A stretch of 64,000 nt of DNA from Schizosaccharomyces osmophilus. Its lineage: Eukaryota; Ascomycota; Schizosaccharomycetes; Schizosaccharomycetales; Schizosaccharomycetaceae. The DNA lies in NCBI RefSeq assembly GCF_027921745.1, contig NC_079239.1, forward strand, positions 1,143,501 through 1,207,500, written 5' to 3'. How positions within the stretch are numbered: position 1 is the stretch's first letter; the number at the start of each line of letters is the position of its first letter. The position numbers and the translations under genes were made by a program. Positions 12,864 to 64,000 of the stretch are shown here, one piece after another. The notes beneath the pieces were generated by a model, which was not told the DNA's origin, did not search any database, and was given only the letters and a program-made list of their open reading frames with translations.

Positions 12864-12935
12864 TCCGTTGTGGTCCAACGGCTAGGATTCGTCGCTTTCA
12901 CCGACGCGGCCGGGGTTCGACTCCCCGCAACGGAA
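12864..12935 (+). tRNA. tRNA-Glu (TTC)
   Basis: 72 nt, TCCGTTG/CAACGGA acceptor, anticodon loop CTTTCAC, T-loop TTCGACT, T-run downstream. First tRNA of the left array; the same tRNA is found reversed at 51455, where similarity is limited to the gene and a T-rich tail. Confidence 0.97.
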
Positions 12936-13161
12936 AATTTTTCTTTTTTCCCTTTCTCAAATACGGTGTTATGATTTTTCTTCAAATATAGCATTAACCA
13001 CTGCATCATACAAGCAGAAATTTGTGCAAAGCAGTAGTACGTGCCGAAGTAAGAATACGATGAACGGAATCATGTGCCATGCCAATTACAGATTGGAGGG
13101 GTCTATAGAACGAATGTATCTTGATTATAGATTATTGTACAAAAATAAGCCATCAACGAAC

Positions 13162-13240
13162 GGAAGGGTGTCCGAGTGGTTATGGAGCTAGTTTAAGGCA
13201 CTAGTGCGAAAGCTCGTGGGTTCGAGTCCCACCCCTTTCA
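13162..13240 (+). tRNA. tRNA-Leu (AAG)
   Basis: 79-nt class II tRNA with a long variable arm, anticodon stem CTAGT/ACTAG around TTAAGGC, T-stem GTGGG/CCCAC. No intron. Copy at 58768. Confidence 0.96.
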
Positions 13241-14893
13241 TTAAGTTTTTGCACTGCTTAAATTTCAGTATCGTGCACAATTGAATATTAGGTTTTTAAA
13301 AGATTTTGTTTAATATTACTTTTTTGTTGATAACCTCTGATATCAACAATGGTTTGTTTGTATTCCTACGTTTTACAAACAGTGAATAAGTTGACCTTTA
13401 TAACTGACAGAAATTAACAACCTTTCCAATGGAAATGGTAAAAGCTGTTTTATAATGAGTTTTTTACTTTTGTTGACCCTTATTGTTATATTTAATCATC
13501 CCCCAAAAATGGAATCAAGTCAAACATTATATAGAATATGACATAAACCGGAAAAGATGGTTGCAACCTTTGAAGAGGCAAAGAGTTTAGCTACGTGGCT
13601 CCATTTTTAACGAATACAATACTGAAGCTACTAGATTCAATTATCGTCTTCAAGTCATGAAATTATAGAAATTACAATTGTAATGTTTTCTGTAAACCCG
13701 TTAACACTTAGCCTGTGGAATGACGACAAAGACGATGAATAAATCAATCGAAAAATGAATGAAAACAGTTTCCGATTTTGGTAATGGTTGTATATTTGTG
13801 GTTTCACGTCTTATTTATTTATTTTTTTTTTAATTTTTCTTATTAGTCATGTTTTAAACGACTCGTCAGTAGCTGCTAAAAAATTGTACCATTTGCGAAA
13901 AGTTATTATATTTGCATAAGCTTCTTTCTCCGGTGCTCATTCTAGCCGAATGTTTTGTTAAAAATATTCCGTATTTCGCGAGGCAGGAAATGAATGAAGG
14001 GAGATTTTAAAGTTCATCTTTGTCCCACATAAGTACGTTGCCATAAAAGAACAATTTAATAAACGTGGACTATGAAGAAGCATTAAAAATATAGAAAAAC
14101 AAATTTCGTCACAAAAACGCACATATCGGCTATTTCCATTAATAAAGCTTTTCAAGGAGAAACCCCAAGAAAGGAAGAAGGAAGAATAAAGAGATATAAT
14201 GATAACCAAACAAAGTTCATAAGGTCAGAATAACTAAAAGATCGTTATCCCCACACGAAAAACGAGGATCGTTGCTGTAAAAAATAAATACGGGATACTT
14301 CATCAATACTTAGGAAGGACGGACGCTCTAAATTTCATTAATTGAAACAAATGATTTCAATGTTTAATCTTTCTAATAGATTCCGGAGCAGATGCCTCTT
14401 AATTACGAGAAGATATAGCGCAAAATCGTATTGACATATCAATGAATTAATTGATGAACTTGTAAAGGTGAAAGAAGAACAAGTTGAAGTGATACATTAG
14501 GACTAACCAAGTTTATTCTTGGTATTATTGATACTATAATGCGAATTGGATTTTATTCTTTCCATACATATATAGGTGCCAATATTTTCTAGTGTATTAA
14601 TCTCAATATATCCAATATGGCTTAAGCAGCTAAAAGCTGTGTATAAGTGTAAAAGTAGTTACAGATGATAATTCTCTAGGTTTGTCAATACTACGAATGT
14701 TTCGTAAAAGGTTTAAGTTTTCAACATTTTCTCCTAAAATTGTGTTAATAGTTTCCAATGTTTTTCGTTTTTCGTTTTTCTTAGTTTGAATATTTAACAA
14801 CAGAGGTAGACAAATGATGTAAACAAGCTTTTAATCAATTGATTAATAGTTTACAGCAATATATTAATTAACTATTAACGATAAATAAGCAAA
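13241..14893. other. Spacer between tRNA-Leu and tRNA-Asp, left copy of repeat A
   Basis: AT-rich spacer, nearly identical in the right copy. It contains the presequence-like relic at 14351-14500 and a weak 83-codon minus-strand reading at 13958-14209 that is conserved only as the repeat is conserved. No other gene is evident. Confidence 0.5.
14351..14500 (+). pseudogene. Possible relic of a small mitochondrial protein gene
   Basis: A 50-codon frame, ATG to TAG, interrupted once by an in-frame TGA. The first 27 residues are basic and serine-rich with no acidic residue (MISMFNLSNRFRSRCLLITR, then RYSAKSY), like a mitochondrial presequence. The part after the stop is an acidic helix-like peptide (HINELIDELVKVKEEQVEV). 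The same frame, including the stop, is in the right repeat copy at 59956-60105. It may be chance; I cannot name a family. Confidence 0.25.
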
Positions 14894-14964
14894 TCTTCCT
14901 TAGTATAGGGGTAGTACACCAGCCTGTCACGCTGGCAGCCCGGGTTCGAATCCCGGAGGGAGAG
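14894..14964 (+). tRNA. tRNA-Asp (GTC)
   Basis: 71 nt, TCTTCCT/AGGGAGA acceptor with G discriminator, anticodon loop CTGTCAC, T-loop TTCGAAT, downstream T-run. Copy at 60499. Confidence 0.97.
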
Positions 14965-15334
14965 TGATTCTTTTTTTGTGTGGTTTTTAATTTTTTGTTT
15001 TTTTTTTCGTTTTTTCGTTTTTTCCTCATACTTGGGTTCTTCCTTGCATTTGAGAACGCCATTCGATTTTGCGTTTCTAATACTGTTTTGTACATGGCTT
15101 TCTTCATCTTTGGCTGTTCACTCAGAGTCATATTCATTAAGTGAAAGTAGATGATGATGATGCATGCTATCAGGTGAAATGAGACAAAAAATTGCTAGTA
15201 AACTGACACTAAGCAAACTAAATGAAACCATCAACAATGAATAGGATAATAGCATAGATGTAGAAAAAAAATAAACATTCATCATCCATTGGATGGTTCT
15301 AAAAAAAAAGAAAAGTTGAAAAAAGTGAAGGCTA

Positions 15335-15417
15335 TGACCGTGCCAAGACTCGAACTTGGGACCGTCTGCGAACATTGAATGTTAAGCAGAAATTATAACC
15401 ATCTAAACCACACGGCC
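15335..15417 (-). tRNA. tRNA-Val (AAC) with short intron
   Basis: 83 nt including about 9 nt of intron directly after anticodon position 37; anticodon loop begins TTAACA. GGCCGTG/CACGGTC acceptor. The intron differs by one base from the right copy at 60931 while the mature tRNA does not. Confidence 0.93.
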
Positions 15418-61621: not shown

Positions 61622-61905
61622 AGTTTTTCTCTTTTTTCTTTTTTTTCCGTTTTGTCGTTATTTCATTGTTTCACTATATTGCTTTTTTTTGCTCTTGTTC
61701 CAGTGTTTCTATTTTGGTTTGTTATAAATTTTATATATTGCGCTCACTGGGTTGATCATACAGGGTGTTTTACACTATGTTGGAACTCTGCAATAAAAAG
61801 ACATTGCTTCAACAAAAGATCTACAAAAGATCAACAAATAATTCAATCAAAGAGCAAATGAAATGGATTTGAAATAAAAAAAATAAAAAGAAACGAAAAA
61901 ATTAA

Positions 61906-61979
61906 TGGTCACAGCCAGGCTCGAACTGGCGACATTCGACTTATTAGATCGACATGATAACCAACTACATCATGCGACC
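61906..61979 (-). tRNA. tRNA-Ile (AAT)
   Basis: 74 nt, direct copy of the gene at 16332. Confidence 0.97.
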
Positions 61980-62052
61980 ATTTGTTACAAGCACTTTATG
62001 TTAGTGTAATCTAATCTGTTCTTTAATAACTGTGTTACTTTTCTGCACATAC

Positions 62053-62086
62053 ACATACATATACATATACATATACATATACATAT
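62053..62086. repeat. (ACATAT)n microsatellite, short allele
   Basis: About six units, against about 33 in the left copy. Confidence 0.95.
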
Positions 62087-62594
62087 TCTATATTTATATC
62101 TATATCTAATATACATGCATGCAAGTATGGATGTCTGTCAGCAATGCAAAGCAAAGCGAAAGAAAGAGATTAAAATAAAACACTCTGCATATGATTTTAT
62201 AAATTTTAGCATAAAAAGCAAACGATAAATTCATAGTAGCAACCGCAAACTACACATCCGTCGAACGAAAACAATCAGTAATGCTAAAGCGAGCTAAATT
62301 AGCTAAATGAAATAAAAAAAAAAAATCTCAGAAAATATATATATATATATATATATATATCATTAATCGCTCGTATCAAAAATAGCTCAATATGGGGGAA
62401 GGAATTGATAGCAGAGAAAAGTAGGAGATATGAATATATATATATTAATAACTAGCTTGTCAGGGAAACGAGCGGATGCTTGGTTGGACATGGGACATGA
62501 CAATCATACTATGTAGTATGTAGTATGTAGTAAACGTTACAAACATTCAACAAAAGCATGAAAAAAATTTAGGTAGACAAGTAATCAATCAAGA

Positions 62595-62667
62595 GGCCTC
62601 GTGGCCCAATGGTCAAGGCGCCTGACTACGGATCAGGAGATTCCAGGTTCGACTCCTGGCGGGGTCA
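62595..62667 (+). tRNA. tRNA-Arg (ACG)
   Basis: 73 nt, direct copy of the gene at 17183. Last RNA gene in the window. Confidence 0.97.
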
Positions 62668-64000
62668 ATTTCTTTTTGCTTTTTTTTGCTTTCTTTTCTT
62701 TTCTTGTTTCATTCCATTTTGTTTTGCTTTTCTTTACCCTTCTATTAGCTAAATGAATAAGTTCGTTCTAAAACATGCAACAGCGAAACGGAATATGAAA
62801 ACAATAGATAACAACCGCCCCGTGAGTGTACGTTCATCTTCTTTTCTAGTCTCATATAGTCATCGTACACCTCGGGATGTTGCGCAAAACATCTCATGAC
62901 CATTTGTAAATTTCCATATATATAATATAATAATATAATCTTGTGCAGCTTCTTGTCCTTGAGAAACACACATAATCTTCCTGAGGGAACTAAGGAATGT
63001 CTGGTTTGGCGAGGCGGTTCAGTTTGTTCGTGTTATAGATCATAACATGAATTCATTGGACTCGTAAGTTCCTTCTCAATGTAAGAAACCGATCATTTCG
63101 TTACTTTCCATGTGTACAATTTATGATCAAACCTGATTCTGTGAAGTTATGTAGACTCGTCATGGATTTCCTCACACTTCTTAAGGACGATTTATACAAT
63201 ATTTACATGATATTTGTAAGCTTATTAAAAGGGTCAATGAAATGAACAAGTGGAAAGAAAAAATAAAACACAAATATTGAAATGTTTAAGAGAAAGTAAG
63301 AAATTTCCAAAAATCCGCATGAGTATGTCTGAATGACAGATAGAAAAAGTTTCGAATCTAATACGAATCATTTTGATTTACACTCGCCATTATCTTGCAT
63401 GTACGTACGCCCTATACTGTTCTGAAGTACGAAATACGAAATACGAAATACAGTGAGTGGAATTTACAAATCATATGAGGATCATATGAACAATCAAATA
63501 TTTAAATATTCACAAATTTTTCAAACGGATAATTGAACTATTGAGTAGGACTCATAGTGTATTCTATTGCCAAGTGTCATTAATTTCGTAAACGACATCA
63601 GGCTTTTTTATCGTATTGAACGATAGCTGAATTGATTACAATTTTTATTTTGTTTTGACTTAGCTGGTAAAACTGTCTCATTTGAATTGATCCCCGAGTT
63701 GTTAAGCGAAGAATCATTCAGGCTCAATTGATTCTAGCTGGTATGCAATTATTGTTAGTCATGTTGTCATAAAGAGTTGTTGTCTTTACACAGTGCGAAC
63801 ACTACAATAACAAAAAAAAAAAAAAAAAAATTAGCTCACTTATAAAATTTTATTGTGTAAATTTTTTTAAATAAACTTATATAATGAAAAGCTGTAACCA
63901 AATTAATAACTATACGAGTAGTCAACTGGTTAGAATAAGGTTATAGAAAAATATTCTCAATATAACGTGCCATTAATTAATCGTCGAAATTTTTTGTAGT
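62668..64000. other. End of repeat A and right window edge
   Basis: Repeat A continues to 63783; then unique AT-rich sequence with a 20-A run to the window end. No gene seen; the right euchromatic flank is not reached. Confidence 0.5.

What the first reader, a model, noticed from the sequence alone, without database searches (positions are those of the whole stretch)
12864..64000. Complete fission yeast centromere with layered symmetry, probably the cen3 equivalent
A unique 3.1 kb core is enclosed by nearly identical 11.5 kb inverted arms, then by tRNA/5S-rich outer repeats. Left-flank genes match, from memory, the S. pombe chromosome III genes beside cen3. Architecture is conserved while core sequence is not recognisable.
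Basis: partly seen in the sequence, partly recalled or inferred. Interest (0 to 1): 0.8.

Follow-up and report, generated by a model that had tools for sequence, protein, structure and literature searches.

The report
Published fission yeast centromere, cen2
This stretch is most of the already published centromere of chromosome 2 of the fission yeast Schizosaccharomyces osmophilus; its layered mirror layout is real, but it is not simply the counterpart of S. pombe centromere 3.

Summary
Contig sizes fit the S. osmophilus CBS 15793T assembly, and the right-flank permease is 100% identical to S. osmophilus Per1 on a contig of our contig's exact length. Jia et al. 2023 describe this locus as cen2: 3.1 kb core, 11.1 kb inverted repeats, about 57 kb between genes. 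I measured a 3,110 bp core, 11.1 kb near-perfect arms (11.5 kb with a less similar rim) and 57.9 kb.

Corrections: (1) the window stops about 4.3 kb before the right flanking gene; (2) the core is not all unique: 858 bp recurs in the cen1 core, 626 bp of it in the cen3 core; (3) one 5S gene lies in the window, and outer repeats are only partly mirrored; (4) 'cen3 equivalent' is half right: the left flank is the chk1 side, but the right flank is the per1/prm1 block with a lys1-type gene, and lys1 is S. pombe cen1-linked, fitting the published inter-centromere translocation.

Each arm holds a decayed LTR retrotransposon. That its inner LTR bounds the CENP-A domain is my untested inference. Interest is low.

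The parts
2950..5157 (-). Gyp2 (TBC/GRAM Rab-GAP), left flank
   Evidence: 87% to S. octosporus Gyp2, 85% to S. cryophilus Gyp2; Pfam
8794..10430 (+). Chk1-like protein kinase gene, split into several open frames; nearest left flanking gene
   Evidence: Open frames 8794-9060, 9070-9537, 9550-10011, 10041-10430; the second, the only one scanned, matches Pkinase at 1.1e-37. The name chk1 follows Jia et al.
12864..21668 (.). Left outer tRNA genes, 12 of them: E L D V A I R R K L E F
   Evidence: Intron-aware ARAGORN; the 'Ser' at 15335 is tRNA-Val with a 9-base intron, the 'tRNA-???' at 19611 is tRNA-Lys
23325..23443 (-). 5S rRNA gene, the only one in the window
   Evidence: Rfam RF00001, 108.7 bits
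24912..36422 (+). Left inverted arm (imr-type); inner 11.1 kb near-perfect
27138..32197 (+). Decayed LTR retrotransposon of Tf type in the left arm: 5' LTR 27138-27539, 3' LTR 31803-32197; separate broken frames with RT, RNase H and integrase/Tf2-type SH3 domains
   Evidence: LTR ends TGTCA...TGACA, limits read from printed sequence and BLAST; Pfam; Jia et al. report 2 degenerated full-length retrotransposons in the centromeres
36241..36312 (+). tRNA-Thr at inner edge of left arm
36423..39532 (.). Central core (published as cnt2)
   Evidence: 3.1 kb in Jia et al.
38262..39119 (.). Part of the core shared with the cen1 core (all of it) and the cen3 core (to 38887); presumably one or more of the published Cnt repeats
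39533..51033 (-). Right inverted arm
39643..39714 (-). tRNA-Thr at inner edge of right arm
43758..48803 (-). Mirror copy of the decayed retrotransposon in the right arm; limits carried over from the left copy through the arm alignment
   Evidence: Pfam on 44216-45367
51455..63787 (.). Right outer repeats with 10 tRNA genes E L K R L D V A I R; partly inverted, partly direct copies of the left side; continue beyond the window

Best explanation
This is most of cen2 of S. osmophilus CBS 15793T, a regional fission yeast centromere. Shown from sequence: a 3.1 kb core between near-perfect 11.1 kb inverted arms, then tRNA-rich outer repeats shared with the other two centromeres, then flanking genes of mixed S. 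pombe origin (chk1 side and lys1 side). Inferred from ChIP in sister species: CENP-A chromatin and the kinetochore form on the core plus the inner arms, and H3K9me2 heterochromatin forms on the outer repeats. I further infer that the inner LTRs of the arm retrotransposon (31803-32197 and 43758-44152), rather than the tRNA-Thr pair, mark the border, giving a domain of about 11.6 kb. Arms stay near-identical by gene conversion (inferred). Centromere identity about 0.97; the LTR border about 0.35 (I first put 0.4 and lowered it on counting the poorly marked border of S.oct-cen1 against it).
For: Contigs 5,565,604 / 3,504,162 / 2,342,500 against 5.57 / 3.50 / 2.35 Mb in print. Per1 100% to the S. 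osmophilus protein on a 3,504,162-base contig. Core lengths 10,106, 3,110 and 9,709 bp against 10.1, 3.1 and 9.7 kb in print. Arms. Outer repeats shared with cen1 and cen3. CENP-A on central domains and H3K9me2 on outer repeats in S. octosporus and S. cryophilus; LTRs at the transition of S.cry-cen3. The S. octosporus 3.2 kb cnt1 alone established poorly in S. pombe, 1.9% (n=1,529), against 28.1, 40.1 and 36.4% for the 6.5, 6.5 and 10 kb cores in the same pK vector, which fits a domain larger than a 3 kb core.
Against: No ChIP for S. osmophilus was on hand; Jia et al. assigned centromeres by synteny of flanking genes and call their boundary view a speculation. Contig 3 is 2,342,500 here against 2.35 Mb in print, a small mismatch. 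At S.oct-cen1, the other counterpart, Tong et al. find the transition poorly marked and suggest that the long arms are a gradual zone. The 4.7 kb and 2.6 kb S. octosporus fragments also established poorly (5.2% and 0.3%), so length alone may explain the 1.9%. My 4-mer scan gave the inner arm -0.005 to +0.007, above the left outer repeats (-0.035 to 0.000) but overlapping gene DNA (-0.013 to +0.005), so it does not support an extended domain. The two LTRs differ strongly in their upstream half.
Confidence: 0.95

Rival explanations
1. Same centromere, but the CENP-A domain is confined to the 3.1 kb core by the tRNA-Thr pair at its edges (36241-36312, 39643-39714).
For: tRNA clusters sit at the transition in two of three centromeres of both S. 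octosporus and S. cryophilus; the Thr genes flank the core here.
Against: Tong et al. state that no tRNA genes mark the transition at S.cry-cen3, whose tRNA order also holds T-T; a 3.2 kb S. octosporus cnt1 works poorly alone.
Confidence: 0.35
2. Same centromere, with no sharp border: CENP-A fades through the long arms, as Tong et al. suggest for S.oct-cen1.
For: S.oct-cen1 has a small core, long arms and a poorly marked transition.
Against: S.cry-cen3 has a sharp LTR border, and LTRs are present in these arms.
Confidence: 0.25
3. It is the direct counterpart of S. pombe cen3.
For: Left flank: Gyp2, SPRY/CTLH, UBC and kinase genes; chk1 side in Jia et al..
Against: Right flank is Per1, L10e, aminoadipate-reductase-type, Prm1, GMP synthase; lys1 is beside S. 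pombe cen1. S. octosporus Gyp2 and Per1 lie on different contigs, 3,105,948 and 4,622,725, though such contigs may also break at centromeres.
Confidence: 0.05
4. The mirror arms are an assembly artefact or a palindromic duplication, not a centromere.
For: Arms are almost identical.
Against: Published HiFi assembly with even read depth except at rDNA; all three chromosomes show a core with inverted arms; the arms do differ at a few sites.
Confidence: 0.01

Closest known systems
S. osmophilus cen2 (Jia et al. 2023, PMC10085805)
   Same: Same species, same chromosome size, core 3.1 kb, arms 11.1 kb, chk1 flank, degenerated retrotransposons in centromeres, repeats shared between centromeres
   Different: Nothing found that differs; it is the same locus. 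Figures and supplementary tables were not seen
S. octosporus cen1 and S. cryophilus cen3 (Tong et al. 2019, PMC6538654)
   Same: Small core, long arms, T-T pair, tRNA blocks RKL-E, DVAIR, RKLEF; S.cry-cen3 has LTRs at the domain border
   Different: No core sequence similarity in print; order of tRNA blocks differs by my reading against the text; S. octosporus has the other flank combination
S. pombe cen3 and cen1
   Same: Core, arms and outer repeats; left flank genes as at cen3, right flank lys1 side as at cen1 (partly recalled)
   Different: Mixed flanks; 5S genes in the centromere, which S. pombe lacks. S. pombe dg/dh repeats were not searched for

Membership tests
S. osmophilus cen2 | Contig sizes and a protein of the species on the same contig | tested here: met
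   contig 3 is 2.34 against 2.35 Mb
S. osmophilus cen2 | Core 3.1 kb, arms 11.1 kb, about 57 kb between flanking genes | tested here: met
   3,110 bp; 11.1 kb near-perfect; 10430 to 68299 = 57.9 kb
Fission yeast regional centromere | Core between near-perfect inverted repeats | tested here: met
   also cen1 and cen3
Fission yeast regional centromere | tRNA clusters and outer repeats shared between centromeres | tested here: met
Fission yeast regional centromere | CENP-A on the core and H3K9me2 on outer repeats | not testable with these tools
   No ChIP data on hand for this species
S. pombe cen3 counterpart | Left flank genes | tested here: met
   Gyp2 by name, domains, chk1 in Jia et al.; the S. 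pombe chromosome assignment is recalled
S. pombe cen3 counterpart | Right flank genes | tested here: not met
   Per1, L10e, aminoadipate-reductase-type, Prm1, GMP synthase; lys1 is cen1-linked in S. pombe
S.oct-cen1 / S.cry-cen3 group | Small core, long arms, T-T tRNA pair | tested here: met
   against the text
S.oct-cen1 / S.cry-cen3 group | Same order of tRNA blocks across the centromere | tested here: inconclusive
   Same blocks, different order, by eye against one order string; the species assemblies were not on hand

The most novel reading that the evidence does not exclude
A dead LTR retrotransposon, kept identical in both arms, has become the border of the kinetochore domain of this centromere, stretching CENP-A over about 11.6 kb (32198-43757), so that a 3.1 kb core reaches the size of the 10.1 and 9.7 kb cores of the sister chromosomes.
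Probability: 0.3. Interest if true: 0.4.

Novelty: already known. Interest (0 to 1): 0.15.

Why it matters
Little is added to print: the locus is published cen2. Two points of use remain. The centromere carries flanks that belong to two different S. pombe centromeres, so a 'cenN equivalent' label misleads. And the inner LTR pair gives a sharp ChIP prediction for where CENP-A should stop.

Tried and rejected
Direct S. pombe cen3 counterpart: rejected on the right flank. A wholly unique core: rejected. LTR divergence as a clock: dropped, because the two LTRs align only over the last 203 bases of the 3' LTR (87.5%) and its first 42 (81%), so the element looks mosaic rather than merely old. A k-mer classifier trained on the cen1 and cen3 cores gave cross-test AUCs of 0.968-0.993 (k=4 and 5), inflated by repeats shared between those cores and between the outer regions; the scan of cen2 (k=4 only) did not separate the inner arm from gene DNA. 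Flanks of cen1 (both sides) and of cen3 (left only): 10 of the open frames listed were scanned (one of them cut at a stretch end) and 9 gave a Pfam family; none was the emc5 family that Jia et al. place beside cnt3; the right flank of cen3 was not fetched. Retrotransposon: 6 of the 10 frames of at least 120 aa in the two arms were scanned. Comparison of the 25S-like fragment with the native 25S gene was not possible: the family search did not complete in eight attempts, and the last 2 kb of contig 3 holds no Rfam match. Paper searches: searches listed nothing, one search listed three unrelated papers; passages of PMC6168568 named none of the flank genes asked for.

Papers: PMC10085805 - outline, passages, sections 15, 23, 26; figures and supplements not seen. 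PMC6538654 - outline, passages, sections 6, 7, 8. PMC6168568, PMC1820850, PMC10219947 - passages only. Others - search listing only.
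Full report
What the window is. The window is C2:1143501-1207500 of a genome with three contigs of 5,565,604, 3,504,162 and 2,342,500 bases. Jia et al. 2023 (PMC10085805) report 5.57, 3.50 and 2.35 Mb for S. osmophilus CBS 15793T. The amino acid permease to the right of the window is 100% identical to 'Per1 [Schizosaccharomyces osmophilus]' on a contig of 3,504,162 bases. I take species and chromosome as settled; the third contig is about 0.3% shorter than in print.

What is there. A self-comparison gives one long inverted pair, 24912-36422 against 39533-51033, 99.77% over 11,516 columns with 6 mismatches and 3 gaps. From 25279 inwards the arms differ at one base, one AT-repeat length (14 bases) and one two-base site; the ~370 bp rim outside holds the other 3 mismatches and 2 gaps. 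This probably explains 11.5 kb (reader, and my BLAST) against 11.1 kb in print. The core is 3,110 bp. By the same method the other two cores are 10,106 and 9,709 bp, against 10.1 and 9.7 kb in print. The cen3 arms that I saw (14.9 kb) are cut by the slice I searched; print gives 21.4 kb.

Outer layers. Intron-aware ARAGORN finds 25 tRNA genes in the window, 24 of them from 12864 on, in bacterial mode, finds 23 and 22. There is one 5S gene in the window. BLAST with it finds 12 copies in the 324 kb fetched around the three centromeres: 6 on C1, 2 on C2, 4 on C3. Print says 13 in the centromeres, and my C3 fetch stops short of the right end. Matches of 300 bp or more between cen2 and the other two run from about 87 to 99.5%. 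Within cen2 the outer repeats are only partly mirrored: one 2.1 kb block is inverted, while two of 3.6 and 1.7 kb are direct copies.

Arms. Each arm carries a decayed LTR retrotransposon; in the left arm its LTRs are 27138-27539 and 31803-32197, with ends TGTCA and TGACA and five-base flanks that match at 4 of 5, read by eye. Six of the ten frames of at least 120 aa in the two arms were scanned: four gave reverse transcriptase, RNase H, or integrase with a Tf2-type SH3 domain; two (the 288-aa frame of either arm) gave no family. Jia et al. report two degenerated full-length elements and four solo LTRs in the centromeres. The 3' LTR has a full-length relative in cen1 (96%) and partial ones in cen1 and on both sides of the cen3 core.

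Core. The stretch 38262-39119 is shared with the cen1 core (97.7%) and, up to 38887, with the cen3 core (99.2%). It is presumably among the Cnt repeats in print. The core is not unique throughout.

Which centromere it corresponds to. The left flank holds Gyp2 with TsaD-type, SPRY/CTLH, ubiquitin-conjugating and kinase genes; Jia et al. put chk1 beside cnt2. The right flank holds Per1, a ribosomal L10e gene, an aminoadipate-reductase-type gene (AMP-binding, PP-binding, NAD_binding_4), Prm1 and GMP synthase. In S. pombe, lys1 is close to cen1 (PMC1820850 passage); that the gene here is lys1, and the other S. pombe gene addresses, rest on domains and recall. The flanks thus belong to two different S. 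pombe centromeres. In S. octosporus, Gyp2 and Per1 lie on different contigs (3,105,948 and 4,622,725), as expected from the inter-centromere translocation with a breakpoint between cnt2 and chk1 that Jia et al. describe. The small core, long arms and T-T pair fit the description of S.oct-cen1 and S.cry-cen3; the order of the tRNA blocks does not match their string exactly. 'cen3 equivalent' in the S. pombe sense holds for the left flank only.

How it works. In S. octosporus and S. cryophilus CENP-A sits on central domains and H3K9me2 on outer repeats (ChIP). Where the CENP-A domain stops here is open. At S.cry-cen3 no tRNA marks the transition and LTRs do; at S.oct-cen1 the transition is poorly marked. 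By analogy with the former I place it at the inner LTRs, giving 32198-43757, about 11.6 kb, close to the other two cores. The weak establishment of the 3.2 kb S. octosporus cnt1 alone (1.9%, n=1,529) fits that, though other short fragments were weak too. My k-mer scan neither supports nor refutes it. This step is inference; I lowered its odds from 0.4 to 0.35, and the novel case from 0.35 to 0.3, when counting S.oct-cen1 against it.

Verdict.

Noticed in passing
54944-55385 (+); second copy C1:1871058-1871577: A 442-base stretch matches the 3' part of eukaryotic 25S/28S rRNA (RF02543, 140 bits; 394 model positions replaced by 54 bases inside). The DNA search found it at two places, cen2 and cen1, 100% alike as rounded by the tool over 521 bases. 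Likely an old rDNA fragment caught in a repeat. In Jia et al. '28S', 'NUMT' and 'rDNA fragment' do not occur in the main text and both '25S' passages are about rDNA arrays; supplements not seen.
   Followed up: partly
54801-56300: The rRNA-like stretch lies in a 1.5 kb tract with 1 mismatch between the cen1 and cen2 copies; other tracts of the same repeat range from 0 to 16 mismatches per 250 bases, so patchy gene conversion is possible.
   Followed up: partly
27138-32197: 5' and 3' LTRs of the arm element differ strongly in the upstream half but are alike over the last ~203 bases, so the element may be a mosaic of two LTR types.
   Followed up: partly
28001-30000 and mirror 46001-48000: Strong AT skew (+0.273 / -0.264) over the retrotransposon, opposite in the two arms.
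   Followed up: no
16470-16704: Array with a 6-base period between tRNA-Ile and tRNA-Arg, seen as self-matches shifted in steps of 6.
   Followed up: no
L037 (C3:2340501-2342500): The last 2 kb of contig 3 has no Rfam match at the gathering score, although Jia et al. describe about one rDNA unit at the right end of the chromosome 3 contig; the held contig may be trimmed.
   Followed up: no
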